In this document: piece after piece, positions 10,837 to 35,533 of the stretch | Numbering within the stretch: position 1 is the first letter of the stretch | Layout of the letters: every line of letters begins with the position of its first letter | Origin: Solirubrobacteraceae bacterium | GTDB lineage: Bacteria > Actinomycetota > Thermoleophilia > Solirubrobacterales > Solirubrobacteraceae | Assembly (NCBI GenBank): GCA_030690545.1 | Contig: JAUYGN010000147.1 | Span: 1-38,929 of the forward strand | Direction: 5' to 3' | Length of the DNA stretch: 38,929 nucleotides | The notes under the pieces: model-generated | Database searches by the model: none | Told to the model about the DNA's origin: nothing | Seen by the model: only the letters and a program-made list of their open reading frames with translations | Translations under genes and position numbers: made by a program

Positions 10837-11796
10837 CTAGGCGGCCGACGGCACGTTCGGTGCGGCGTCCTGCTTGCGGCTGACGTGATCGTCGCCGCCG
10901 ACGGCGACGGCGGCCTTGGCCGTCACGAGGTGATACAGGATCAGGACCTGCGTGATCGCCAGCGACTCCGACCGGTGCGCCTCGTCGGTGCCGACGGCGA
11001 ACGTCCCGAGCCGCTCGGTGCGCAGATGGCGCGCGAAGTGCATCTGCTCCCAGATCGCCTCCTCGATCGCGGCCCCGCGGTCACGATCGATGTCGCCGGG
11101 GATGTGCAGCTTGCGCTCCGAGGCGCCCTGCTCGATCGGGATCGCGTCACGGCCTTCCTCGTCGGCCATCGCCGACAGGTCGGGGTGCGGCAGCCCGTCG
11201 CGCAGCGTCAGGACGGCGTCGAGGTGATCGGGATCGTCGTGGACGCCCGGTTGGAAGGAGACGACGATGTCCGCCCGCGAGCGCTGCGGGCGGATGAAGG
11301 CCTCCGAGTCGGGCTCGCGCGTGTCGAGCTCCTTGAGCACCTGCTGCTCGGTGTAGCCGCGCTTGGTCGTGTCGCGCTTGACCTTCCACTCGCGCCGCAG
11401 CTCCTCCGGCGGTGCGAGATAGACGCGGATGTCGAAGAGCGCGCTCAGCTCGCTCGTGTGGTAGCCGAGCAGGCCCTCGATCAGCACGAAGCTCTTCGGC
11501 TTGACGTACGCCGGCCGGCCGAACGTCCCGTCGCCGTGCTGGTAGACGGGCTTGAGGATCGGCTCGCCGCGGCGCAGGTGGCCGAGGTGCTGGCCGATGA
11601 CGTCCATGTAGTTGCAGTCCGGATGCAGCGGCGTGATCGCGTGCTCCGCGCGCTCGGTGCGATCGAAGCAGTGGTAGTCGTCCATCCCGATGTGGGTGAC
11701 GTTCTCCCTGCCCAGGATCTCGACGAGGCCCTTGGTGAGCGTCGTCTTGCCTGTTGCTGAATCACCGACGACGCCGAGGATGATCGGACGTGCCAT
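10837..11796 (-). CDS. Phosphoribulokinase-family kinase, copy 1
   Basis: P-loop kinase of the phosphoribulokinase (PRK) family, expected to phosphorylate ribulose-5-phosphate or a related pentose phosphate. The 319-residue product has Walker A GDSATGKTT (11-19), the DDYH motif near 39-42, a CNYMD motif, KPVYQH and the second catalytic region IEGLLGYH, as in cyanobacterial-type PRK and unlike uridine kinase. The ATG at 11796 is preceded by AGGGGAGA at good spacing. A candidate promoter (GGGACA-17-TAAGGT) lies upstream. It is a clear paralogue of the kinase at 34604-35533. No RuBisCO is seen, so the pathway is open; uridine-kinase-like activity cannot be excluded. Confidence 0.85.
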   Translation of the reverse strand: MARPIILGVVGDSATGKTTLTKGLVEILGRENVTHIGMDDYHCFDRTERAEHAITPLHPDCNYMDVIGQHLGHLRRGEPILKPVYQHGDGTFGRPAYVKPKSFVLIEGLLGYHTSELSALFDIRVYLAPPEELRREWKVKRDTTKRGYTEQQVLKELDTREPDSEAFIRPQRSRADIVVSFQPGVHDDPDHLDAVLTLRDGLPHPDLSAMADEEGRDAIPIEQGASERKLHIPGDIDRDRGAAIEEAIWEQMHFARHLRTERLGTFAVGTDEAHRSESLAITQVLILYHLVTAKAAVAVGGDDHVSRKQDAAPNVPSAA

Positions 11797-11831
11797 GTGC
11801 AGTCTCCCCTGTCGTGTCGCCGAAGCGCGGA

Positions 11832-11860
11832 ACCTTAGCGCCTCGCGCCAGCAGTGTCCC
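11832..11860 (-). promoter_or_regulatory. Candidate promoter of PRK copy 1
   Basis: On the minus strand GGGACA (11860-11855) and TAAGGT (11837-11832) are separated by 17 bases and resemble a housekeeping promoter. Transcription would start near 11825, giving a leader of about 30 bases that contains the AGGGGAGA ribosome-binding site. Confidence 0.45.
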
Positions 11861-11940
11861 TGCCGCGCGATCCGGCGCTCGTCGGGCGCCGCCACCGGTG
11901 CGGGACGGGTCCCCGAGCGGCGGCGCGAACGTCCGTCCGG

Positions 11941-12642
11941 TTGAATGAGCCGATCGGCGTTTCCTTTCTGATTCCGGCATACAACGAGGCGGCGACGATC
12001 GGCGAGGTGCTGGCGCGGATCGACGCGCTCGGCCTCGACACGCAGATCGTCGTCGTCGACGACGGCTCGACGGACGCGACGGCGTCGATCGTCGAGGCGT
12101 ACGCCGTCGGGCGGCCGCATGTCGAGTTGCTGCGCCAGCCCAACCGTGGCAAGGGGTCGGCGGTGCGGCTCGCGGCGACACGGGTATCGAAGTCGATCGC
12201 GGTGATCCAGGACGCCGACATGGAGTACGACCCGGCGGATGTCGTGCGACTGGTCGCACCGATCGAGCAAGGGGTCGCCGACGTCGTCTACGGCTCGCGC
12301 CTGAGCGGCGGAGCGCCGCAGCGCGCCTACCTGTTCTGGCATCTGATCGGCAACCGCTTCCTGTCGCTGCTGACCGGCGTGCTGTTCAACACGACGCTGA
12401 GCGACATGGAGACCGGCTACAAGGCGTTCGACAGCGACGTGCTGCGCTCGCTGCGCCTGACGCGCGACGACTTCGGGATCGAGCCGGAGATCACCGGCGA
12501 GATCTGCCGGCGCAAGCTGCGCATCTACGAGATGCCGATCTCCTACTACGGGCGCACGTACGCGGAGGGCAAGAACATCACCTGGCGCGACGGCTTCACG
12601 GCGATCGGCGTGCTGGTGATGGTCCGGCTGCGACGGCGGTGA
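11941..12642 (+). CDS. Family 2 glycosyltransferase
   Basis: Predicted to move a sugar from a nucleotide donor to a polyprenyl phosphate or similar acceptor at the cytoplasmic membrane face. From TTG 11941 it has 233 residues beginning MNEPIGVSFLIPAYNEA. The GT-A fold signatures are VVDDGSTD (39-45) and the metal-binding QDADMEYDP (Asp91, Asp93), with GFGIEPE-like acceptor residues near DDFGIEPEIT. There is no membrane segment, as in soluble DPM1/WcaA-like members. An in-frame ATG at 11854 exists but would add a non-conserved, Arg-rich tail and overlap the opposite promoter; the TTG is my choice with moderate confidence. The stop overlaps the start of the next gene (GTGA), so the two are coupled. 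Confidence 0.85.
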   Translation: MNEPIGVSFLIPAYNEAATIGEVLARIDALGLDTQIVVVDDGSTDATASIVEAYAVGRPHVELLRQPNRGKGSAVRLAATRVSKSIAVIQDADMEYDPADVVRLVAPIEQGVADVVYGSRLSGGAPQRAYLFWHLIGNRFLSLLTGVLFNTTLSDMETGYKAFDSDVLRSLRLTRDDFGIEPEITGEICRRKLRIYEMPISYYGRTYAEGKNITWRDGFTAIGVLVMVRLRRR

Positions 12643-13616
12643 CGGCGCGCCGCGGCATGCGGCCGCTGCTGACGATCGTCGGGCTCGCGGTGACCGCGGC
12701 CTGCATGTACCTCGCGGTCCGCGGCGTCGCGCTGGACGACGCGCTCGATGCGCTGCGCGGCAGCGAGCTGTGGTGGATCGTGCCGACGCTGGCGGTCTTC
12801 GCAGTGGCCGTCGAGCTGCGCGCCGTGCGCTGGTGGGCGCTGTACGACGGCGTCGATCGTCCACCGTTGCGGGCGGTCCGATACGCGCTGCTGATCGGCT
12901 ACTTCTTCAACAACATCCTGCCCGCCCGGGCAGGCGAGGCGGCGCGCGTGATCGCGTTGCACAAGCGCGCCGCCACGCCGCGCGCGGAGACGATCGGGAC
13001 CGTCGTCGTCGAGCGCGTGTTCGACATCCTCGCGCTGCTGGCGATCCTGCTGGTGGCCTACCCATGGCTGCCGGACATCTCGTGGCTGCGCACCGCCGCG
13101 ATCGCCGGCGCCGTCGTCGTGGCGCTGCTCGCCGTCCTCGTCGCGGTGATCGTGCGCTACGACGAACGGGCGGTGCACTGGCTGCTCGCCCCGCTGCGCC
13201 GCGTCAAGCGCGCCGGCTTCGCGGCCCGCGTCGAGGTCGCCGCCGTCAATGCCACCCGCGGCCTCGTCGCGCTGCGCGACCCGCGCGTCGCGCTGCGCGG
13301 CTTCCTGCTGACCGTCGCGTCGTGGGTCGCGATCGGGACCTCGTACTGGATCCTGATGTCCGCGTTTCACCTCGACCTGCCGCTCGTCGCCGGCCTGCTC
13401 GTCACCGTCGCGATCAACTTCTCGCTGATCCTGCCGTCCTCGCCGGCGGCGCTCGGGGTCTTCGAGGCCGCGACGATCATCGCGCTGCGCGCCTTCGACG
13501 TCCCGCAGGCCGAGGCGCTCTCCTATGCGCTCGTCCTGCACCTCGTCAACCTCGTCCCGTTTCTCGTCATCGGCGCCGTCCTGCTGCGTCCCGGCGCGCT
13601 GCGACGCGACCGCTGA
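12639..13616 (+). CDS. Lysylphosphatidylglycerol synthase TM-region (UPF0104) family membrane protein
   Basis: A 325-residue multipass protein with about eight hydrophobic segments. Features of the family include the RWW motif near 65, the NNILPARAGEAARV stretch near 90-103, the VVVERVFD motif and the SSPAALGVFE motif near 268. These proteins resemble the flippase half of MprF but lack the aminoacyl-transferase domain, and are often paired with glycosyltransferases that act on lipid carriers. GTG 12639 overlaps the upstream stop, which fixes the start and implies joint function, perhaps making and moving a glycolipid. The exact substrate is unknown. Confidence 0.85.
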   Translation: MTARRGMRPLLTIVGLAVTAACMYLAVRGVALDDALDALRGSELWWIVPTLAVFAVAVELRAVRWWALYDGVDRPPLRAVRYALLIGYFFNNILPARAGEAARVIALHKRAATPRAETIGTVVVERVFDILALLAILLVAYPWLPDISWLRTAAIAGAVVVALLAVLVAVIVRYDERAVHWLLAPLRRVKRAGFAARVEVAAVNATRGLVALRDPRVALRGFLLTVASWVAIGTSYWILMSAFHLDLPLVAGLLVTVAINFSLILPSSPAALGVFEAATIIALRAFDVPQAEALSYALVLHLVNLVPFLVIGAVLLRPGALRRDR

Positions 13617-19805: not shown

Positions 19806-21005
19806 TCAGCCGACGAACTCGATCTCGACCGGCTCGCCGGCCTCGATCCCGTCGCGGTCCTCGGGCACGAGCGCGAGCGCGTCGACGCCGAGCATCGAGG
19901 TGAGGATGTGCGACTCCTGGGACTTCGTCGGGCGCACGTGCCAGCCGTCGTCCTGCAGCGTCGTGCGGCAGCGGATCACCGTCGTGCGCCCGACCGCGCC
20001 CTCGAGCGGCTCGTCGGCGGTCGCCGTCAGCGGGTGATGCTCACCGCTGCGCCCGAGCATCGCGTCCATCGCCGGCACGACGAAGAGGCGAAAGGCCATC
20101 AGCGCGGAGACCGGGTTGCCGGGCAGCGCGAAGACGAGCGTGCCGTCCTCGCCGACGGCGACCGTGGTCGGCCGGCCGGGCTTGAGCTTGACCCCGGCGA
20201 AGACCTCGCGGTAGCCCAGGCGCTGGAGCGCCGGGCGGACGTGGTCGTGCGGGCCGACCGAGACGCCGCCGGTCGTGATCAGGATGTCGACGTCGCGCAG
20301 CGCCGCGCCGAGCACGGAGACCGTCGCCTCGAGGTCGTCGCCGACCCGCACGCGGGTCACGAGCTCGCCGCCGGCGCGGTGCACCGCGCCGCCGAGCGCC
20401 GGTCCGTTGGAGTCGCGAATCGCACCCGGCGCCAGCGGCTTGCCGGGATCGGTCAGCTCGTCGCCGGTACCGGCGATCGCGACGCGCGGGCGGCGCACGA
20501 CGCTCGGCCGCGGGATGTTCATCGAGGCCAGCACGCCGAGCTCGGCGGGACCGAGCAGCGATCCGGCAGGCACGACGAGCTCGCCGGCGTTGATGTCCTC
20601 GCCGGGCGGCCTGACGTGGTAGCCGAGCGCGATCTGGCCGTCGATCGCGACGGACGTGCCGTCGCTGCGCGTCAGCTCCTGGGGCACGATCGCGTCGGCC
20701 CCGTCGGGCACCGGGGCGCCCGTCGAGATCCGCACGGCGGTCCCGCGGCGGACGCTGACGCCCGCCTCGCTGCCGGCCTTCGCCTCGCCGATCAGCTCGA
20801 GCTCGGCCGAGCCGTCGATCGTGTCGGCGGCGCGGATCGCGAAGCCGTCCATCGCCGAGGCGGCGAACGGCGGGACGTCGTTGGGCGCGCTCGCGTCGAG
20901 CGCGAGCGCGCGGCCGAGCGCGTCGTCGAGGGCGACCTCCTCGGCGCCGAGCACATGGGCGTGCTCGAGTACGGCGGCGCGCGCCTGCTGGATCGAGACG
21001 GGCAT
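19806..21005 (-). CDS. moeA: Molybdopterin molybdenumtransferase
   Basis: Inserts molybdate into adenylated molybdopterin to give molybdenum cofactor. The 399-residue product has the MoeA pattern: PPFAASAMDGFA (45-56), an STGAPVPDGADA loop, GTGDEL, the catalytic TTGGVSVGPHD and LPGNPVSA, then the C-terminal beta domain. Length is normal. The window also encodes a molybdenum nitrate reductase at 27993-31520 that needs this cofactor, though the two are 7 kb apart and on opposite strands. Upstream, 21006-21136 holds no convincing gene. Confidence 0.95.
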   Translation of the reverse strand: MPVSIQQARAAVLEHAHVLGAEEVALDDALGRALALDASAPNDVPPFAASAMDGFAIRAADTIDGSAELELIGEAKAGSEAGVSVRRGTAVRISTGAPVPDGADAIVPQELTRSDGTSVAIDGQIALGYHVRPPGEDINAGELVVPAGSLLGPAELGVLASMNIPRPSVVRRPRVAIAGTGDELTDPGKPLAPGAIRDSNGPALGGAVHRAGGELVTRVRVGDDLEATVSVLGAALRDVDILITTGGVSVGPHDHVRPALQRLGYREVFAGVKLKPGRPTTVAVGEDGTLVFALPGNPVSALMAFRLFVVPAMDAMLGRSGEHHPLTATADEPLEGAVGRTTVIRCRTTLQDDGWHVRPTKSQESHILTSMLGVDALALVPEDRDGIEAGEPVEIEFVG

Positions 21006-23255: not shown

Positions 23256-24314
23256 TCAGCTCGCCAGCAGCGCTTCGAGCGTCGCCGCCGCGCGACCGTC
23301 GGCGATCGCCGTCGTCGCGAGCGCCGCGCCCGCGCCGACGCTGTCGCAGCGCCCGGACGCATAGAGCCGCACGCCCGCGCTGAGGATCGCGGTGTGGCCG
23401 GCGATGCCGTGCTCCTCGCCCGCCGCGATCGCGCGCGTGAGCTCGGCGGCGATCTGCGGATCGGCGTCGCCGCGCAACACGCTGCCCGGCGCTTCGCCGA
23501 TCTCCAGCGGGCCGTTGGCGTCGGCCGCCGACGGGCGTCCCGTGCGCAGGATGTCGGCGCCCTCCATGCCGCGCACCGCGACCGCCCGCTGCGCGCCGAG
23601 CAGCTCGAGCGCGCCGAGGATCCGCTCGCGATAGGAGCTGTGCGTATGGCCGACGACGAAGCAGGTCGCGCCGAGGTGGTCGACGAGCTTCTCGGCGCTG
23701 TGCAGCGGGCCGCGCAGGCCGATCTCGTCGCGGATCCCCGCCAGGGCGTCCCAGCCGGGGATCGCCGCGCTCGCGTGGACGAGCGCGACGTCGGAGCGTT
23801 CGAGCATCGCCAGCGAGTCGGCCGGCTTGGGCCGCAGGGGTCCGCCGAGCGCGACGAGCACGTCGGCCGGCGTCGTGCCGCGCTTTGGTCCGATGCGCGA
23901 GCCGCAGTGCACGACGACGCGCGCGCCCGCCGCCGCCGCCAGGACGGCGGCCGCGAGCGAGAGCTGCGGTGCTTCGCTCATGCCGTCGTAGGCCCCCGCG
24001 CAGGCGACGATCGGACGGCCGCCGTTCGGCGGATCGGGCGCCACCGCGCGGGCGGCGTCGCGCAGGGCTCGGGCGATCCCGGCAAGCTCGGCCGGGGTCT
24101 CCCCCTTGATCCGCATCGCGACGAGGAAGGCACCCGCCTGCACGGGGCTGACATCGCCGGCGAGCAGGCCGGCGGTCGCGCCGCGCGCCTCCTCGAACGT
24201 CAGCGCGCGGCTGCCCCGTGGTCCGGTCCCGACGGCTTTGATGACGGCGCGGAAGCCGGGGTAGTCACTGCGCCCGCGACGTTCGGACAGCTGCGTGCGT
24301 GGCCGCGCGCTCAT
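23256..24314 (-). CDS. TrpD-like glycosyltransferase family 3 protein (YbiB/TrpD2-like)
   Basis: Resembles anthranilate phosphoribosyltransferase in fold: an N-terminal helical domain (TFEEARGATAGLLAGDVSPVQAGAFLVAMRIKGET broken over 43-77) and an alpha/beta domain. Where true TrpD has the PRPP-binding GTGGD motif this protein has CAGAYDGMSE, and the anthranilate-site residues are not obvious. That is the pattern of the TrpD2/YbiB group, which has been reported to bind nucleic acid rather than act in tryptophan synthesis. ATG 24314 overlaps the stop of the GlnR-like gene by 4 bases (ATGA); an alternative ATG is at 24326. The 352 residues are normal for the group. The link to nitrogen regulation is unexplained. 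Confidence 0.75.
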   Translation of the reverse strand: MSARPRTQLSERRGRSDYPGFRAVIKAVGTGPRGSRALTFEEARGATAGLLAGDVSPVQAGAFLVAMRIKGETPAELAGIARALRDAARAVAPDPPNGGRPIVACAGAYDGMSEAPQLSLAAAVLAAAAGARVVVHCGSRIGPKRGTTPADVLVALGGPLRPKPADSLAMLERSDVALVHASAAIPGWDALAGIRDEIGLRGPLHSAEKLVDHLGATCFVVGHTHSSYRERILGALELLGAQRAVAVRGMEGADILRTGRPSAADANGPLEIGEAPGSVLRGDADPQIAAELTRAIAAGEEHGIAGHTAILSAGVRLYASGRCDSVGAGAALATTAIADGRAAATLEALLAS

Positions 24315-24985
24315 GCTCCCTCCCACCGGTAGCCGACGCTGCGCACGGTCTTGATCCGCCCGGCGTGCTCGCTGCCGAGCTTCGCGCGGACACGCCGCAC
24401 GTGGACGTCGACCGTCCGCGCCCCGCCGTAGTAGTCATAGCCCCAGACGCGGTTGAGCAGCGCCTCGCGCGAGAAGACGCGCTTGGGATGGGTGACGAGG
24501 AACTTCAGCAGCTCGTACTCCATGAACGTGAAGTCGACCGGCCGCCCGTCGATCGCGACCTGATAGGTCGCGAGGTTCATCTCCAGGCTGCCGACGCGGA
24601 CGATGTCGTCGTGATCGATGCCGTTGACCGCGCGACGGGCGCGCGCGATCCGCGCCTGCAGCTCCTCGGCGGTGAACGGCTCGACCAGCAGCTCGTGTCC
24701 CTCGGCGACGCCGATCCCGGCGCCGAGCACGTCGGCCGGCAGCGCGACGATGACCGGCACTTCGCCGAGCTCCTCGTCGGCGGCCAGGCGCGCGCACAGC
24801 TCGGCGCAGGACGGCTGCTCGAGGCCGTTGGCGAGCACGAGCGCGAGCGCCGGTGCGCGCGACTCGCCCTCGACCGGGCGCAGCGTGCCGTTGGCGGCCA
24901 CGCGGTGTGGGCTGAAGCCGAGCTCGGCGAGCAGCCGCGAGCTCGTATCGCTGCCATGGCTGCCGTAGATCCAGGCGTCGCTCAC
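24311..24985 (-). CDS. glnR: GlnR-like OmpR-family regulator with atypical receiver
   Basis: Probable transcriptional regulator of nitrogen metabolism. The 224-residue protein has a receiver-like N-terminal half (1-118) that lacks the phosphoryl-acceptor Asp, since the expected position reads ALVLANG. A winged-helix domain (about 130-222) follows with the GlnR-like stretches THPKRVFSRE, WGYDYYGGARTVDVHVRR and a TVRSVGY end. An unphosphorylated receiver and this DNA-binding helix are hallmarks of actinobacterial GlnR. The GTG start at 24985 gives MSDAWIYG. It lies 56 bases after glutamine synthetase on the same strand and a GlnR-box is found before nirB. Orthology to GlnR is inference; another orphan OmpR regulator is possible. 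Confidence 0.75.
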   Translation of the reverse strand: MSDAWIYGSHGSDTSSRLLAELGFSPHRVAANGTLRPVEGESRAPALALVLANGLEQPSCAELCARLAADEELGEVPVIVALPADVLGAGIGVAEGHELLVEPFTAEELQARIARARRAVNGIDHDDIVRVGSLEMNLATYQVAIDGRPVDFTFMEYELLKFLVTHPKRVFSREALLNRVWGYDYYGGARTVDVHVRRVRAKLGSEHAGRIKTVRSVGYRWEGA

Positions 24986-27992: not shown

Positions 27993-30900
27993 GTGCAGAC
28001 CACCCCGACCCAGTGTCCCTACTGCGGCGTCGGCTGCGGCCTGCTCGCCGACGTCGACGACGACGGCCGCCTGACCGCGGTCCGCGGCGACATGCGCCAC
28101 CCCGCCAACCGCGGGCGCACGTGCCGCAAGCCGCTCGGCCTGCCGTTCGCCGTCAGCGCGCCCGACCGCGCGACGACGCCGCTGTACCGCGACGACCGCG
28201 ACGACCGCTTCGAGCCGACCGGCTGGGAGGACGTGCTCGGCGCGCTCGCCGGCAAGCTACGCGCGATCGTCGACGAGCACGGGCCCGACGCCGTCGCGTT
28301 CTACATCTCCGGCCAGCTGCTGACCGAGGACTACTACGCGATCAACAAGCTCGCGAAGGGCTTTCTCGGCACGAACAACGTCGACTCGAACTCGCGCCTG
28401 TGCATGTCCTCGGCCGTCGCCGGCTACAGCGGCGCGTTCGGCTTCGACGGCCCGCCGCCGGCGTACGCCGACATCGCGCTCGCCGACTGCTTCCTGCTGC
28501 TCGGGACGAACACGGCCGCCTGCCACCCGATCCTCTGGGGACGGATCCGCGACCGCCAGGCCGAGGGCGCGTTCGTCATCTGCGCCGACCCGCGGCGCAC
28601 GCAGACCGCGAAGGGCGCCGACCTGCACCTCCCGGTCCGCCCCGGCACCGACCTCGCGCTGCTCAGCGGGCTGCTGCATGTCGTCGATCGCGACGGGCTC
28701 CTCGACGAGGGCTTCATCGGACGCCACACGAGCGGCTGGGAGGACGCGCGGGCAGTCGCGCGGGAATGGTCGCCCGCGCGCGCCGCCGAGGTCTGCCAGG
28801 TCGAGGCCAAGCTGATCGAGCAGGCCGCGCACCGCTTCGCGAGCGCGGGCGCCGCGATGGCGCTGTGGTCGATGGGCGCCAACCAGTCGACGGTCGGGAC
28901 GCTGAAGAACCGCGGCCTCATCAACCTCTGCCTGGCGACCGGCCAGATCGGCCGGCCCGGCAGCGGCCCGCTGTCGCTGACCGGCCAGCCGAACGCGATG
29001 GGCGGTCGCGAGACCGGTGGCCTGTCGCAGCTGCTGCCCGGCTACCGCAAGGTCGCCGACGCCGACGATCGCGCGGCGATGGAAGCGCACTGGGGCGTGC
29101 CGGCCGGGCGCCTGTCGCCGACCCCCGGCCTACCGGCGGTCGAGCTCTTCGACGCGCTCGAGGCGGGGACCGTGAAGGCCGTCTGGGTGATGGCGACGAA
29201 CCCGCTCGTCTCGCTGCCCGACGGCCAGCGCGCGCGGGCGGCGCTCGAGCGCGCCGAGCTCGTCGTCGTGCAGGACCCGCATCATCCGACCGAGACGTCC
29301 GCGCTCGCCCATGCCGTCCTGCCGGCCGCGGCATGGCCGGAGAAGGAGGGCGCGATGACGAGCTCCGAACGCCGGATCGGCCTCGTCCGGCGGGCCGTGG
29401 CGCCGCCGGGCGAGGCCAGGCCGGACTGGGAGATCGTCGCCGGCCTCGCGCGTCACCTCGGCTACGGCGACGCGTTCGCATGGCCCGACAGCGCCGCCGT
29501 GTTCGACGAGTTCGCCGCCTGCACGGCCGGGCGGCCGTGCGACATGACCGGCGTCTCGCACGAGCGCCTGCGCCGCGAGGGCGGCGTGCAGTGGCCCGCG
29601 CCGGCGCAGGCCGTCGGCGAGCACGAGGGCACCGTGCGCCTCTACGAGGACCACCGCTTCCCGACGCCCGACGGCCGCGCGCGCTTCGCGCCCACGCCGC
29701 ACGCGGCGCCCGCCGAGACGCCCGACGCGGACTTCCCGCTGCTGCTGACGACCGGTCGCGTCGCCGACCAGTGGCACACGATGACGCGTACCGGCCACTC
29801 GCCGACGCTGCGCGCGTCGGCCGGCGAGGCGACGCTCTCCTGCCATCCGCTCGACGCGTCCGCGGCCTCCCTCGGCGCCGGCGACCTCGTGCGTGTCGTC
29901 TCACGCCGCGGCGAGCTGCGCCTCCCGGTCGCACTCGACGACGGCCTGCCGCGCGGCGTCGCCTTCGCGCCGTTTCACTGGGGCGCGATGCATGCCGCGG
30001 CGGGCGCCGGGGTGCTCAACGCGCTGACGATCGCCGCCGTCGACCCGACCTCCAAGCAGCCCGAGCTGAAGGCGCTCGCCGTGCGCCTGGAGCCCGTCAG
30101 GCAGCGCGACGAGCCGGTCCGGCGGCGAGCGCCGGCGAAGCCCAAGCGACTCGTCGTCGTCGGCACCGGGATGGCCGGCCTGGCGGTCGTCGAGGAGGCG
30201 CTGCGCCGGCGCCCGACGAGCGACTGGAAGATCGTCATGCTCGGCGAGGAGCCGGGCCCGGCCTACAACCGCGTCCTGCTGAGCAAGCTGCTGGCGCGCA
30301 CTTGCGGGCCCGGCGAGCTCGAGCTGCGCCCGCTCGCCTGGTACCGCGCGCACGACGTCGACCTGCGCGGCGGCAGCCGCGCGGCGGCGCTCGACCTCGA
30401 CGGTCGCGCGGCGATCGACGATGCCGGCATCCGCCATCCCTACGACGCGCTCGTGCTCGCGACCGGCTCACGCGCGTTCGTCCCGCCGGTGCCCGGCGCC
30501 GAACTCCCGCATGTCGACGTCTTTCGCACCTGGCGCGACGCCGACGCGCTCGCCGCCACGCCGGCCGGCGACCGCGCGGTCGTCATCGGCGGCGGGCTGC
30601 TCGGCCTCGAGGCCGCTGCCGGGCTGCGCGCCCGCGGCGTCGCGGTCACCGTCGTCGAGCTCGCCGCGCAGCTGATGGGCCAGCAGCTCGATGCGGGCGC
30701 CGCCGGCATGCTGCAACGCGCGCTGGAGTCGCAGGGGATCGCCTGCCGGCTGGGACGCAGCGCCGCGCGGATCGAGGCCGACCGTGTCGTGCTCGACGAC
30801 GGCGACGAGCTGCCGGCGACGCGCGTCATCGTCGCCGCAGGGGTGCGCGCCGAGACGTCGCTGGCGCGCGCCGCCGGCCTGGCCGTCGGGCGCGGCGTCG

Positions 30901-31520
30901 TCGTCGACGACGCGCTGCGCACGAGTGCTCCGGCGGTCTGGTCGGTCGGCGAGTGCGCCGAGCACCGCGGCGTCGTCTACGGGCTGTGGGCACCGCTCGC
31001 CGAGCAGGCGCGCGTCGCGGGCGCCGGCGTCGCGGGCGACCCGGCGGCGTTCCACGGCGCGGTCGCCGCGACGACGCTGAAGGTCAGCGGCGTCGACGTC
31101 TACGCGGGCGGCGAGTCGGCCGGCGCGGCGCCGGACGGCCACGACGAGATCGTCCTCAGCGACACGCGGCGCGGCATCTATCGCCGTCTCGTGCTCGACG
31201 GCGAGCGCCTGACCGGCGCCGCGCTCGTCGGCGACGTCGCGGCTGCGCGGCACCTGACCGAGCTGCTGCGCAGCGGCGAGCCGGTCCCGTCGGATCTGCT
31301 GGAGTCGCGCCCCGGACCGAGCGCCGACGCGCTCGCCGCCGACCCCGCCGTGCTGATCTGCTCGTGCAACGCCGTCAGCGTCGGCGACGTGCAGGCGGCG
31401 ATCCGCCGCGACGGCCTCAGCACGATCGCCCAGGTCAGCCGACAGACACGGGCCGCGACGGGCTGCGGGGGCTGCTCGGCCGACGTGCAGACCCTGCTCG
31501 ACGCCGCTGCAGCATCGTGA
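27993..31520 (+). CDS. nasA: Assimilatory nitrate reductase fused to NirB-like FAD/NAD(P) reductase and [2Fe-2S] domain
   Basis: Reduces nitrate to nitrite in the cytosol with electrons from NAD(P)H, apparently in one chain. From GTG 27993 the product is 1175 residues. Part 1 (1-700): molybdopterin oxidoreductase with a [4Fe-4S] set (Cys8, 11, 15, 44), the molybdenum ligand Cys137 in SRLCMSSA, and a C-terminal dinucleotide-binding domain. Part 2 (about 718-1090): pyridine-nucleotide-disulfide reductase fold with FAD loop GTGMAG and NAD loop IGGGLLGLE (about 864). Part 3 (about 1120-1165): BFD-type [2Fe-2S] with Cys1123, 1125, 1158 and 1161. In Bacillus, parts 1 and 2 are separate subunits (NasC, NasB). 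The frame could open earlier (27858), but conservation begins at the GTG. NirB follows. Confidence 0.9.
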   Translation: MQTTPTQCPYCGVGCGLLADVDDDGRLTAVRGDMRHPANRGRTCRKPLGLPFAVSAPDRATTPLYRDDRDDRFEPTGWEDVLGALAGKLRAIVDEHGPDAVAFYISGQLLTEDYYAINKLAKGFLGTNNVDSNSRLCMSSAVAGYSGAFGFDGPPPAYADIALADCFLLLGTNTAACHPILWGRIRDRQAEGAFVICADPRRTQTAKGADLHLPVRPGTDLALLSGLLHVVDRDGLLDEGFIGRHTSGWEDARAVAREWSPARAAEVCQVEAKLIEQAAHRFASAGAAMALWSMGANQSTVGTLKNRGLINLCLATGQIGRPGSGPLSLTGQPNAMGGRETGGLSQLLPGYRKVADADDRAAMEAHWGVPAGRLSPTPGLPAVELFDALEAGTVKAVWVMATNPLVSLPDGQRARAALERAELVVVQDPHHPTETSALAHAVLPAAAWPEKEGAMTSSERRIGLVRRAVAPPGEARPDWEIVAGLARHLGYGDAFAWPDSAAVFDEFAACTAGRPCDMTGVSHERLRREGGVQWPAPAQAVGEHEGTVRLYEDHRFPTPDGRARFAPTPHAAPAETPDADFPLLLTTGRVADQWHTMTRTGHSPTLRASAGEATLSCHPLDASAASLGAGDLVRVVSRRGELRLPVALDDGLPRGVAFAPFHWGAMHAAAGAGVLNALTIAAVDPTSKQPELKALAVRLEPVRQRDEPVRRRAPAKPKRLVVVGTGMAGLAVVEEALRRRPTSDWKIVMLGEEPGPAYNRVLLSKLLARTCGPGELELRPLAWYRAHDVDLRGGSRAAALDLDGRAAIDDAGIRHPYDALVLATGSRAFVPPVPGAELPHVDVFRTWRDADALAATPAGDRAVVIGGGLLGLEAAAGLRARGVAVTVVELAAQLMGQQLDAGAAGMLQRALESQGIACRLGRSAARIEADRVVLDDGDELPATRVIVAAGVRAETSLARAAGLAVGRGVVVDDALRTSAPAVWSVGECAEHRGVVYGLWAPLAEQARVAGAGVAGDPAAFHGAVAATTLKVSGVDVYAGGESAGAAPDGHDEIVLSDTRRGIYRRLVLDGERLTGAALVGDVAAARHLTELLRSGEPVPSDLLESRPGPSADALAADPAVLICSCNAVSVGDVQAAIRRDGLSTIAQVSRQTRAATGCGGCSADVQTLLDAAAAS

Positions 31521-31635: not shown

Positions 31636-31673
31636 TTCACCGGGTGGAAACACGTACGGCACGCCGGGGAAAC
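31636..31673 (+). promoter_or_regulatory. GlnR box upstream of nirB
   Basis: TTCAC (31636) n6 GAAAC (31647) n6 GGCAC (31658) n6 GAAAC (31669) matches the GlnR consensus gTnAC-n6-GaAAC repeated twice, with exact 11-base steps and AC-n9-AC kept at all four sites. Its centre (31654.5) is 41.5 bases before the nirB ATG. A 7-bp inverted repeat (ACGCCGG/CCGGCGT, 31661-31679) overlaps its end. Confidence 0.75.
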
Positions 31674-31695: not shown

Positions 31696-34134
31696 ATGAG
31701 CCACGGAGTCGTCATCGTCGGTGGGGGGATCGCCGGCCAGGCCGTCTGCGAGGCGCTGCGCGAGCGCGACGCCGACGTCGCAATCACGCTGATCTGCGGC
31801 GAGCGCAGCGCACCCTACGATCGCGTGCGCCTGTCGGAGATCCTCGTCAGCGGCGAGGACCCGCAGACGCTGCAGCTGCGTCCGCCGGAGTGGTACGAGG
31901 ACAACGGCGTCGAGCTGCTCGTCGGCCGGACCGTCACGTGGGTCGACGCCGAGCGCGGCGCGCTCGGGCTCGACGACGTCGACGAGCTGGCCTTCGACCG
32001 GCTCGTGCTGGCGACCGGCTCGCAGCCGCTGATGCCGCCGATCCCCGGGATCGACCTCGCCGGCGTGCACCCCTTCCGCGACCCTGCCGACTGCGACGCG
32101 ATCCGGGTCGCGGCCGCGCAGGGCGGCGTCCGGCGCGCGGCGGTCATCGGCGGCGGGCTGCTCGGGCTGGAGGCCGCGCGGGGGATCGCCGCGCAGGGCT
32201 GCGCGGTCACCGTCGTGCACCTGCTCGACCGCCTGATGGAGCGCCAGCTCGACGCGGGCGCGAGCGCGCTGCTGGCGCCCGCCCTGCTCGGCCTCGACAT
32301 CGACGTCGAGTTCGAGCGCAGCACGCAGCAGATCATCGGTCCCGAGCGCGCCCACGGGCTGCGCTTCAGCGACGGCTCGGAGCTGCTCGCCGACCTCGTC
32401 GTCGTCTCGATCGGGATCCGGCCGGAGACCGAGCTGGCCCGCACGATGGGCGTCGTCTGCGACCGCGGCATCATCGTCGACGACGCGATGTGCACGAGCC
32501 TGCCGAACGTGCTCGCCGTCGGCGAGTGCGCGCAGCACCGCGGCGTGGTCTACGGCCTCGTCGCCCCGATCCACGACCAGGCGCGGGTCGCCGCCGCGAC
32601 GCTGACCACGCAGCGCGCGCCGGTCGGCGGCCCGACCGACGGCGCTCCGGGCGCGCTCTACCTCGGCTCGGTGCCGAGCGCGAAGCTCAAGGTCGCCGGC
32701 ATCGACCTCGTCTGCGCGGGCGACGCAGCCGGCGACCTGGAGGCCGTCGTCAGCGACGCCGCGACCGGCGTCTACCGCAAGCTCACCGTCCGTGACGGCC
32801 GCGTCGTCGGCACGGTCCTGCTCGGCGACACGCGCGGCTCGGAGGCGCTCGTCGCCGCGGTCCGCGCCGGCGATCCGGTCGACAATCCGCTGCAGGCGCT
32901 TGCCGACGCCTCGCTCGCCGGTCCGGCCGACCTGCCCGACACGGCGCAGATCTGCGACTGCAACGGCGTCTGCAAGGGCGACCTCGTCGCGGCCGTCAGC
33001 GAGGGCGGCTGCGCGACGCCGCGCGAGGTGATGGCGGTCACCCGCGCCGGGACCGGCTGCGGCTCCTGTCGCCCCGCGGTCAAGGAGATCGTCGCCGCCG
33101 CGACCGGCGGGCTGAGCGACGAGCCGACCTACCTGTGCCCCTGTCGCAAGCAGACGCGCGAGCAGCTCGCCGCCGAGATCCGCGACGCCGGCATGCAGTC
33201 CGTCAGCGAGGTCGCGGCGACCTGCGGCACCGGGCGCGACTGCGGCACCTGCAAGCCGGCGCTCGCCTACCTCGTCTCGGAGGTCTGCGCCAACCAGCAT
33301 CGCGAGGAGCGCGACGCGCGGTTCATCAACGACCGCGTGCACGCGAACATCCAGCGCGACGGCACGTTCTCGGTCGTGCCGCGGATGTACGGCGGCGTGA
33401 CGACGCCCGACGAGCTGCGCCGGATCGCCGACGTCGCCGACAAGTACGAGGTCCCGATGGTGAAGGTCACCGGCGGCCAGCGACTTGACCTGCTCGGCGT
33501 GCGCAAGCAGGACCTGCCCGCGATCTGGCGCGATCTCGGGATGCCCTCCGGCCACGCCTACGCGAAGGCCGTGCGCACGGTCAAGACGTGCGTCGGCACC
33601 GACTTCTGCCGCTTCGGCCTGGGCGACGCGGTCGGCCTGGGCATCGAGATGGAGAAGCTCTGGGAGGGCCTACACACTCCACACAAGGTCAAGTCCGGGG
33701 TATCCGGCTGTCCGCGCAACTGCGCGGAAGCGACGGTGAAGGACATCGGCTGCGTCGCCGTCGAGGGCGGCTGGCAGGTCCGCGCCGGCGGCGCGGCCGG
33801 TGGCAACGTGCGCGAGGCCGACATCCTGGCGACCGTGGAGACCCGCGCCGAGGCGCTGCGGATCGCGACGACGTTCCTGCAGTACTACCGCGAGAACGCC
33901 GACTACAAGGAGCGCACGTACGACTTCATCCCGCGCATCGGCCTCGAGACGGTGCGCGAGATCGTGCTCGGCGAGGACAGCGGCGCCGCGCTGCGCGAGC
34001 GCCTGCGGATCGCGAAGGCGGCGACGGCCGATCCGTGGCTGGAGCGCGACGACCCCTACCACCCGCGACAGTTCGAGGACCTCGACGCGCCCGAGCCGGT
34101 GCTCGCCGGCCCGCCCGCCGGGGGCGAGCGGTGA
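31696..34134 (+). CDS. nirB: Nitrite reductase [NAD(P)H], large subunit
   Basis: Reduces nitrite to ammonium with NAD(P)H electrons. The 812-residue protein has an FAD domain (VGGGIAG near 9) and NAD domain (IGGGLLGLE near 152), two BFD-type [2Fe-2S] domains (Cys420, 422, 455, 458 and Cys481, 483, 516, 519), a ferredoxin-like half-domain, and the siroheme/[4Fe-4S] site CVGTDFC (632, 638) with SGCPRNC (672, 676). ATG 31696 is fixed by the FAD loop just after it. The gene follows the nitrate reductase by 175 bases and overlaps nirD by 4 bases. A GlnR box lies directly upstream. Siroheme synthesis genes are not in the window. Confidence 0.97.
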   Translation: MSHGVVIVGGGIAGQAVCEALRERDADVAITLICGERSAPYDRVRLSEILVSGEDPQTLQLRPPEWYEDNGVELLVGRTVTWVDAERGALGLDDVDELAFDRLVLATGSQPLMPPIPGIDLAGVHPFRDPADCDAIRVAAAQGGVRRAAVIGGGLLGLEAARGIAAQGCAVTVVHLLDRLMERQLDAGASALLAPALLGLDIDVEFERSTQQIIGPERAHGLRFSDGSELLADLVVVSIGIRPETELARTMGVVCDRGIIVDDAMCTSLPNVLAVGECAQHRGVVYGLVAPIHDQARVAAATLTTQRAPVGGPTDGAPGALYLGSVPSAKLKVAGIDLVCAGDAAGDLEAVVSDAATGVYRKLTVRDGRVVGTVLLGDTRGSEALVAAVRAGDPVDNPLQALADASLAGPADLPDTAQICDCNGVCKGDLVAAVSEGGCATPREVMAVTRAGTGCGSCRPAVKEIVAAATGGLSDEPTYLCPCRKQTREQLAAEIRDAGMQSVSEVAATCGTGRDCGTCKPALAYLVSEVCANQHREERDARFINDRVHANIQRDGTFSVVPRMYGGVTTPDELRRIADVADKYEVPMVKVTGGQRLDLLGVRKQDLPAIWRDLGMPSGHAYAKAVRTVKTCVGTDFCRFGLGDAVGLGIEMEKLWEGLHTPHKVKSGVSGCPRNCAEATVKDIGCVAVEGGWQVRAGGAAGGNVREADILATVETRAEALRIATTFLQYYRENADYKERTYDFIPRIGLETVREIVLGEDSGAALRERLRIAKAATADPWLERDDPYHPRQFEDLDAPEPVLAGPPAGGER

Positions 34135-34463
34135 GCGTCGCGATCGGTCGGTACGTCTGCCAGGTCGACGACGTCCCGCTCGGCGAGGGGCGCGCGATCA
34201 CCCTCGACGGCCGCCGGATCGCGGTCTTCCGTGCCGCGGGCGGCTGGTTCGCGCTGGACGCCATCTGCCCGCACCGCGGTGGCCCGCTCGCGGACGGCAT
34301 CGTCTGCGACAGCGCCGTGATCTGCCCCCTGCACGAGCGCCGCTTCGACCTCGCGACCGGCTCCGGGCTGACGACCGACGACGCGGTCGTCGCCCATGCC
34401 GTCGAGCTGCAGGGCGAGCGCGTCTTCATCACGCTCGCCGCCGAGCAACGCGCCGCGGCCTGA
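34131..34463 (+). CDS. nirD: Nitrite reductase small subunit (Rieske-type)
   Basis: Partner of NirB with a Rieske-like fold. The 110-residue protein keeps the full cluster set: CPHRGGPL (Cys46, His48) and CPLHERRFDL (Cys65, His68), so it likely binds [2Fe-2S], while some NirD proteins have lost these residues. GTG 34131 overlaps the nirB stop (GTGA), giving translational coupling. The spacer to the next gene (34464-34603) has a GC-rich inverted repeat but no T-tract. Confidence 0.93.
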   Translation: MSVAIGRYVCQVDDVPLGEGRAITLDGRRIAVFRAAGGWFALDAICPHRGGPLADGIVCDSAVICPLHERRFDLATGSGLTTDDAVVAHAVELQGERVFITLAAEQRAAA

Positions 34464-34603: not shown

Positions 34604-35533
34604 ATGGCACGACCGATCATGCTCGGGATCGTCGGCGATTCGGCGTCGGGCAAGACGACGTTGAGCAAAGGGCTCGTGAGGCTCCTCGGCGAGGAGTCCG
34701 TCACGCACATCTGCACCGACGACTACCACAAGTACGACCGTCGCCAGCGCGCCGAGCGCGGCATCACGCCGCTGAACCCGGAGTGCAACTACCTCGACAT
34801 CATGGCCCAGCACCTGCAGTGCCTGCGGCTCGGCGAAGCGATCCTCAAGCCCGTCTACCAGCACCACGACGGAACCTTCGGACCGCTCGTCTACACGCAC
34901 CCGGAGAGCTTCACGCTGATCGAAGGCCTGCTCGGCTACCACACCGAGGGGATGCGCTCGGCCTACGACGTGCGCGTCTACCTCGACCCGCCCGAGACGC
35001 TGCGCCGCCAGTGGAAGGTCGACCGCGACTGCTCCAAGCGCGGCTACACGACTGACGAGGTGCTCGCCGACCTCGACCGCCGCGAGCCCGACTCCGAGGC
35101 CTTCATCCGTCCGCAGCGCCGCAACGCCGACATGGTCGTCTGCCGCATGGAGAACCCCGACGACCCGTTCATCCTCGACGCCGAGCTGACGCTGCGCGAC
35201 AGCCTCCCGCACCCCGATCTCAGCCCGTTCGTCGAGGAGAGCGACGGCCAGATCACGATGACCGAGCGCGCCGGCGAGCGCACGCTCTTCATTCCCGGCG
35301 CGCTGGCCCGCGAGCGTGCCGCGGCGATCGAGGAGTCGATCTGGGACCGCATGCACTTCGCCCGCCACCTGCGCTCGGAGGCGCTCGGCGAGTTCACCGT
35401 CGGCAACGACGTGCATCGCTCGGAGTCGCTCGCGCTCGTCCAGCTGCTGATCCTCTATCACCTCACGACGGCGCGGGCCCGTGTCTCGCTCGGCGACGAG
35501 CCGGGCGTCGACGACCACGCCAGCGTGGCCTGA
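34604..35533 (+). CDS. Phosphoribulokinase-family kinase, copy 2
   Basis: Paralogue of the kinase at 10837-11796; by eye well over half of the positions are identical along the whole length, beginning with the shared MARPI opening. The 309-residue product has GDSASGKTT (11-19), DDYH near 39-42, CNYLD, KPVYQHHDG, IEGLLGYH and RPDSEAF-like REPDSEAFIRPQR. ATG 34604 has a strong ribosome-binding site (GGAGAGGAGGAG). It follows nirD on the same strand but with a 140-base gap and its own candidate promoter. A PfkB sugar kinase converges with it. The substrate is expected to be a sugar phosphate; the absence of RuBisCO leaves the product's use unknown. Confidence 0.85.
   Translation: MARPIMLGIVGDSASGKTTLSKGLVRLLGEESVTHICTDDYHKYDRRQRAERGITPLNPECNYLDIMAQHLQCLRLGEAILKPVYQHHDGTFGPLVYTHPESFTLIEGLLGYHTEGMRSAYDVRVYLDPPETLRRQWKVDRDCSKRGYTTDEVLADLDRREPDSEAFIRPQRRNADMVVCRMENPDDPFILDAELTLRDSLPHPDLSPFVEESDGQITMTERAGERTLFIPGALARERAAAIEESIWDRMHFARHLRSEALGEFTVGNDVHRSESLALVQLLILYHLTTARARVSLGDEPGVDDHASVA

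What the first reader, a model, noticed from the sequence alone, without database searches (positions are those of the whole stretch)
27993..31520. Nitrate reductase, NAD(P)H reductase and [2Fe-2S] domain fused in one 1175-residue chain
The catalytic Mo/[4Fe-4S] part, a complete FAD/NAD(P) reductase and a BFD-type [2Fe-2S] domain are read in one frame. In Bacillus the first two are separate subunits (NasC, NasB), and Klebsiella NasA has only the [2Fe-2S] tail. A single chain would carry electrons from NAD(P)H to nitrate without a partner subunit. All cofactor residues I looked for are intact.
Basis: partly seen in the sequence, partly recalled or inferred. Interest (0 to 1): 0.62.

Follow-up and report, generated by a model that had tools for sequence, protein, structure and literature searches.

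The report
Single-chain nitrate reductase built from nirB
In one order of soil actinobacteria the enzyme that turns nitrate into nitrite has been joined in one protein to a copy of the front half of its neighbour, nitrite reductase, so one chain probably takes electrons from NADH straight to nitrate; it is a new arrangement of well-known parts, not a new kind of enzyme.

Summary
One open frame (27993-31520, +) encodes a complete NasA/NarB-type Mo/[4Fe-4S] nitrate reductase, an FAD/NAD(H) reductase with its Rubredoxin_C domain, and a BFD-type [2Fe-2S] domain. It is not a frameshift artefact: same-order relatives at 55-89% identity have the same uninterrupted chain with every cofactor cysteine kept. 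About 35 of 151 sampled genomes of the order (16 of 48 genera) hold a strong match, mostly full length. I found it nowhere outside the order (Solirubrobacterales by named members), within capped searches. Catalytic parts of the fused chains form one clade, sister to unfused enzymes in MO-nirB-nirD operons of another class. The reductase part groups with the order's own NirB, so the likely origin is a copied nirB front half fused to the neighbouring reductase. AlphaFold2 predicts one compact protein (pLDDT 93, pTM 0.93). Setting (nirB-nirD, glutamine synthetase, GlnR-like regulator, GlnR-box-like sites) says nitrate assimilation. Single-chain NAD(P)H nitrate reductases are known: diflavin NasN, eukaryotic NR and ichthyosporean CS-pNR, which also took the NirB front half. 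I found no description of this architecture in the held literature. New variant of a known kind; no activity was measured.

The parts
27993..31520 (+). single-chain nitrate reductase, 1175 aa (whole gene)
   Evidence: open frame; Pfam; same chain in >20 same-order genomes
27993..30098 (+). catalytic part, residues 1-702: [4Fe-4S] (C8, C11, C15, C44), Mo-bisPGD domains, C137 at the Mo ligand position
   Evidence: Pfam; match to NapA 2nap Z 49.0, 686 residues, 1.7 A; invariant residues
30099..30140 (+). linker, residues 703-716, P/R-rich, poorly conserved, variable length
   Evidence: alignment A1
30141..31277 (+). FAD/NAD(H) reductase with Rubredoxin_C domain, residues 717-1095, NirB-front-half type
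   Evidence: Pfam; TIGR02374 NirB positions 1-470, 400 bits, over residues 720-1174; TodA/BphA4 fold Z about 40
31353..31502 (+). BFD-type [2Fe-2S] domain, residues 1121-1170, C1123/C1125/C1158/C1161
   Evidence: PF04324; invariant cysteines
31636..31673 (+). GlnR-box-like element TTCAC-n6-GAAAC-n6-GGCAC-n6-GAAAC before nirB
   Evidence: 16 of 18 consensus letters, 0 of 100 shuffles as good; consensus from PMC10704036
27931..27968 (+). weak GlnR-box-like element before the fused gene
   Evidence: 11 of 18 letters here (not significant), 14-16 at the same place in L144-L146
31696..34134 (+). nirB, siroheme nitrite reductase large subunit (source family of the fused reductase part)
   Evidence: TIGR02374 774 bits over cut-off 578; two Fer2_BFD domains
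34131..34463 (+). nirD, Rieske-type small subunit, overlaps the end of nirB (start position read from the sequence)
   Evidence: PF00355/PF13806
25042..26349 (-). glutamine synthetase-like gene, divergent
   Evidence: TIGR00653 381 bits, below cut-off 429; kept beside the fused gene in many relatives
24311..24967 (-). GlnR-like OmpR-type response regulator, divergent (GlnR identity inferred from setting)
   Evidence: OmpR/PhoB-family matches below cut-offs; co-occurrence with the glutamine synthetase and fused gene

Best explanation
This is a cytoplasmic assimilatory nitrate reductase with its electron supply built into the same chain. Proposed path: NADH reduces FAD in the NirB-type reductase part, electrons pass singly to the C-terminal [2Fe-2S] cluster, from there to the N-terminal [4Fe-4S] cluster and on to the Mo-bisPGD centre, where nitrate becomes nitrite; the neighbouring NirBD then reduces nitrite to ammonium and glutamine synthetase takes it up. 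Shown here: the domains, the conserved cofactor residues, the confident single-chain fold, the operon setting and the phylogeny. Inferred: the electron order, NADH over NADPH (E889 at the end of the second nucleotide-binding strand here, H in some relatives) and independence from a partner. Origin, inferred from trees: in an ancestor of this order an unfused nitrate reductase encoded beside nirB-nirD gained a copy of the front half of nirB, giving nitrate reduction a private electron feed instead of one shared with nitrite reductase.
For: Pfam architecture; invariant cofactor residues in 16 sequences; intact in many genomes; AlphaFold2 pLDDT 93.4, pTM 0.93 with NapA (Z 49) and NADH-dependent ferredoxin reductase folds (Z about 40); catalytic tree: fused chains one clade 99*, sister to unfused f20 enzymes 100*; reductase tree: groups with the order's NirB, 99/94*; nirB-nirD adjacent in nearly all fused loci; of three Molybdopterin-family proteins in the genome this is the one in a nitrite reductase operon; NarK-like transporter candidate and siroheme-type methyltransferase elsewhere; GlnR-box-like site.
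Against: No activity data found for any member. No coordinates were available, so cofactor distances could not be measured. The node uniting all fused reductase parts is unstarred (63/91 to 84/89). NCBIfam nitrate reductase models are matched well below their cut-offs. The NarK-like match is below its cut-off.
Confidence: 0.85

Rival explanations
1. The chain is fused but still works mainly in a complex with NirBD or a separate ferredoxin, which passes electrons between the two reductases, as NasG does in Paracoccus; the built-in reductase is partly redundant.
For: nirB-nirD is adjacent in nearly all fused loci; in Paracoccus NasB feeds both nitrate and nitrite sites through ferredoxin NasG (PMC4724949); the unfused sister group has no separate NasB beside it.
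Against: The chain holds every carrier needed, all invariant; nirB is not adjacent in G037.
Confidence: 0.1
2. The catalytic part is a formate dehydrogenase, so the chain would be an NAD+-linked formate dehydrogenase.
For: Best NCBIfam score is formate dehydrogenase alpha TIGR01591, 534 bits, slightly above NasA and NasC models; formate dehydrogenase structures align nearly as well as NapA (Z 46-47 against 49).
Against: Below that model's cut-off of 666; closest solved relatives by sequence are NapA; the tree places it with cyanobacterial and proteobacterial nitrate reductases; operon with nirB-nirD.
Confidence: 0.03
3. Assembly or annotation artefact: two genes joined by a sequencing error.
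For: A few relatives do show two frames at this place (G036, G383), as does the outgroup G135.
Against: Many independent genomes, including single-contig ones, have one open frame through both parts; G036 and G383 have intact congeners.
Confidence: 0.01

Closest known systems
NasN, NADPH-dependent nitrate reductase of Mycobacterium smegmatis (PMC7816997; original report Tan et al. 2020, not held)
   Same: One chain with an N-terminal Mo/[4Fe-4S] nitrate reductase and a C-terminal NAD(P)H reductase; actinobacterial; nitrogen-regulated assimilation.
   Different: NasN's electron module is a diflavin reductase; the same kind (Flavodoxin_1 + FAD_binding_1 + NAD_binding_1) is seen here in L103, L084, L113; catalytic parts are separate clades, diflavin type 100*.
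CS-pNR, chimeric nitrate reductase of ichthyosporeans (PMC6400420)
   Same: A nitrate reductase catalytic part fused to the front half (Pyr_redox_2 + Fer2_BFD) of the clustered NAD(P)H nitrite reductase.
   Different: Its catalytic part is that of the eukaryotic (sulfite-oxidase-type) NR, an unrelated Mo enzyme; it arose in a eukaryote, independently.
NasB/NasC of Bacillus and NasC/NasB/NasG of Paracoccus
   Same: Same catalytic family and the same kind of FAD/NAD(H) electron supply.
   Different: Separate subunits; here both parts are in one chain and the reductase part groups with the order's own NirB.
NasA with a C-terminal BFD tail (Klebsiella type; here many proteobacterial loci)
   Same: Mo/[4Fe-4S] part followed by a BFD [2Fe-2S] domain (e.g. 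L077 Pfam).
   Different: No FAD/NAD(H) part in the chain.
NirB, NADH nitrite reductase large subunit
   Same: Residues 720-1174 match NirB positions 1-470.
   Different: No siroheme half; a nitrate reductase part precedes the reductase instead. One BFD domain instead of two.

Membership tests
Assimilatory nitrate reductase (NasA/NarB/NasC group of the DMSO reductase family) | N-terminal [4Fe-4S] cysteines, Mo-bisPGD domains, Cys at the Mo ligand position | tested here: met
Assimilatory nitrate reductase (NasA/NarB/NasC group of the DMSO reductase family) | Phylogenetic position with known NasA/NarB-type sequences | tested here: met
   with cyanobacterial and proteobacterial enzymes and unfused actinobacterial enzymes in nirBD operons; reference enzymes were identified by taxon and operon, not by tested function
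Assimilatory nitrate reductase (NasA/NarB/NasC group of the DMSO reductase family) | Nitrate reductase activity | not testable with these tools
   needs protein or mutant
NCBIfam NasC equivalog NF047855 and halophilic NasA equivalog NF041323 | Score over the curated cut-off | tested here: not met
   510 of 1100 and 516 of 1000 bits; not filed under these two equivalogs
NasN (diflavin single-chain nitrate reductase) | Flavodoxin_1 + FAD_binding_1 + NAD_binding_1 reductase part | tested here: not met
   reductase part is Pyr_redox_2 + Rubredoxin_C + Fer2_BFD; separate clade
NirB nitrite reductase | NIR_SIR siroheme domains in the chain | tested here: not met
   absent from the fused chain, present in the neighbour 31696-34134
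CS-pNR / eukaryotic nitrate reductase | Sulfite-oxidase-type Mo domain | tested here: not met
   catalytic part is Molybdopterin/Molydop_binding type
Formate dehydrogenase alpha (TIGR01591) | Score over the curated cut-off | tested here: not met
   534 of 666 bits

The most novel reading that the evidence does not exclude
Bacteria and eukaryotes independently made single-chain nitrate reductases by the same step, copying the NADH-oxidising front half of the neighbouring nitrite reductase, because a shared NirB feed limits nitrate reduction; in this order the module was later released again from the fused chain and given a membrane anchor, creating a new NADH-oxidising membrane protein.
Probability: 0.3. 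Interest if true: 0.6.

Novelty: new variant of a known kind. Interest (0 to 1): 0.42.

Why it matters
It is at least a third solution to the same problem, feeding a nitrate reductase from NAD(P)H without a separate partner, beside diflavin NasN and the eukaryotic enzymes. The likely donor is visible in the next gene, and the unfused ancestor-like state survives in a sister group, so the cost and benefit of fusing the electron supply can be tested directly by splitting the chain or fusing the unfused pair.

Tried and rejected
Frameshift or misassembly: rejected by conserved open frames. Bacillota-type reductase as the source of the reductase part: a Niallia protein with a long C-terminal part (L182) falls with proteobacterial NirB, not with the fused parts; a true B. 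subtilis NasB was not available. Formate dehydrogenase: see rivals. Viral contigs: none. Phage records: none of the five rows looked at showed the fusion; the two best have two separate annotated genes. Papers: searches on the domain name, on NasB/NasC fusion, on Thermoleophilia and on Solirubrobacter gave no description of this chain; most subscription journals are not held. The original NasN paper is not held. Fused reductase parts as a clade that excludes the membrane-anchored relatives: rejected (p-AU 2e-5; the group was tested after the tree was seen).

Full report
OBSERVATION. The frame at 27993-31520 (+) is open and encodes 1175 residues. Pfam finds, in this order and all over cut-off, Molybdop_Fe4S4, Molybdopterin, Molydop_binding, Pyr_redox_2, Rubredoxin_C and Fer2_BFD. 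An alignment with 15 relatives at 55-89% identity keeps every cofactor residue looked at: C8, C11, C15, C44 and K46, C137 at the Mo ligand position, and the four [2Fe-2S] cysteines. The GTG start at 27993 occurs at the same place in three congeners. A frameshift is excluded by the same uninterrupted chain in many genomes.

SPREAD. In 151 sampled genomes of the order, 35 have a strong match (27 of 97 good-quality ones, 16 of 48 genera); most cover the whole chain in one frame, some are cut by contig ends or frameshifts, and three genomes of one genus have a second copy. The order is taken to be Solirubrobacterales, since Conexibacter sp. DBS9H8 and Solirubrobacter soli carry the same chain. In 296 genomes drawn from the whole phylum and in the 80 best loci of the species-level genome collection I found the three-part chain only in this order. 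These searches are capped, so rare cases elsewhere are not excluded.

ORIGIN. In the tree of catalytic parts the fused chains form one clade (99*; the single unfused row in it is the frameshifted G036), sister (100*) to unfused enzymes of family f20 in another class, which sit in MO-nirB-nirD operons without a separate reductase gene between them. The diflavin, NasN-like enzymes form their own clade (100*). In the tree of reductase parts the fused ones, with the membrane-anchored relatives, join the NirB proteins of the same order (99/94*) to the exclusion of other NirB proteins. The simplest reading is one fusion in an ancestor of the order, using a copy of the front half of nirB. The node uniting all fused reductase parts is only moderately supported (63/91 to 84/89).

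STRUCTURE. AlphaFold2 on an alignment of 85 sequences gives mean pLDDT 93.4 and pTM 0.93, so the relative placement of the parts is predicted with confidence. Residues 1-702 match periplasmic nitrate reductase 2nap (Z 49.0, 686 residues, 1.7 A) and 714-1117 match NADH-dependent ferredoxin reductases such as TodA and BphA4 (Z about 38-40).

SETTING. nirB follows at 31696 and nirD overlaps its end; a glutamine synthetase-like gene and an OmpR-type regulator lie divergently upstream, an arrangement kept in many relatives. Before nirB lies TTCAC-n6-GAAAC-n6-GGCAC-n6-GAAAC, 16 of 18 letters of the GlnR consensus gTnAc-n6-GaAAc-n6-GtnAC-n6-GAAAc (PMC10704036), not reached in 100 shuffles; before the fused gene the site is weak here and strong in L144-L146. 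The genome has two other proteins of the Molybdopterin family, a NarK-like transporter candidate below its cut-off and a siroheme-type methyltransferase over its cut-off. This is the setting of nitrate assimilation.

MECHANISM. Most likely NADH to FAD to [2Fe-2S] to [4Fe-4S] to Mo to nitrate within one chain. The order of carriers follows from the known NirB, NasB and NapA families and is inference. NADH rather than NADPH is suggested by E889, which is H in some relatives, and is weak.

COMPARISON. NasN is one chain with NADPH as donor but has a diflavin module (PMC7816997, PMC11162112). CS-pNR of ichthyosporeans is the closest parallel in construction: the front half of the clustered NAD(P)H nitrite reductase joined to a nitrate reductase, there of the eukaryotic type (PMC6400420). 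Bacillus NasB/NasC and Paracoccus NasB/NasG/NasC use separate subunits. The chain fails the defining features of NasN, NirB and CS-pNR and the cut-offs of the NasA/NasC equivalog models; it is filed as an assimilatory nitrate reductase on residues, phylogeny and setting.

VERDICT. Real, conserved and, as far as the held literature shows, undescribed in this exact form, but a new variant of a known kind.

Noticed in passing
L154:5463-7853, L155, L156:5911-8043, L157, L158, L159:6907-9333, L160: Separate reductase + [2Fe-2S] genes with a hydrophobic, apparently membrane-spanning N-terminal part without a Pfam match; they nest inside the fused reductase parts in the tree (L160 only, on a long branch), as if split off again. 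Function and gene neighbours not studied.
   Followed up: partly
window 31636-31673 and the same region of L144: GlnR-box-like tandem element between the fused gene and nirB.
   Followed up: yes
window 34604-35533 (+) and 10837-12864 (-): Two phosphoribulokinase-like genes in one 39-kb window; the first is over the cut-off of NF005655, the second was seen only as a similar translation.
   Followed up: no
G018:C1:2934104-2937199 (L021), G420:C55, G446:C98: A second, more divergent fused copy in one genus; in G018 and G420 the match ends before the [2Fe-2S] domain.
   Followed up: no
window 19806-21005 (-): MoeA-like molybdenum cofactor gene about 7 kb from the fused gene; also nearby in L139, L152, L164, L171.
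   Followed up: no
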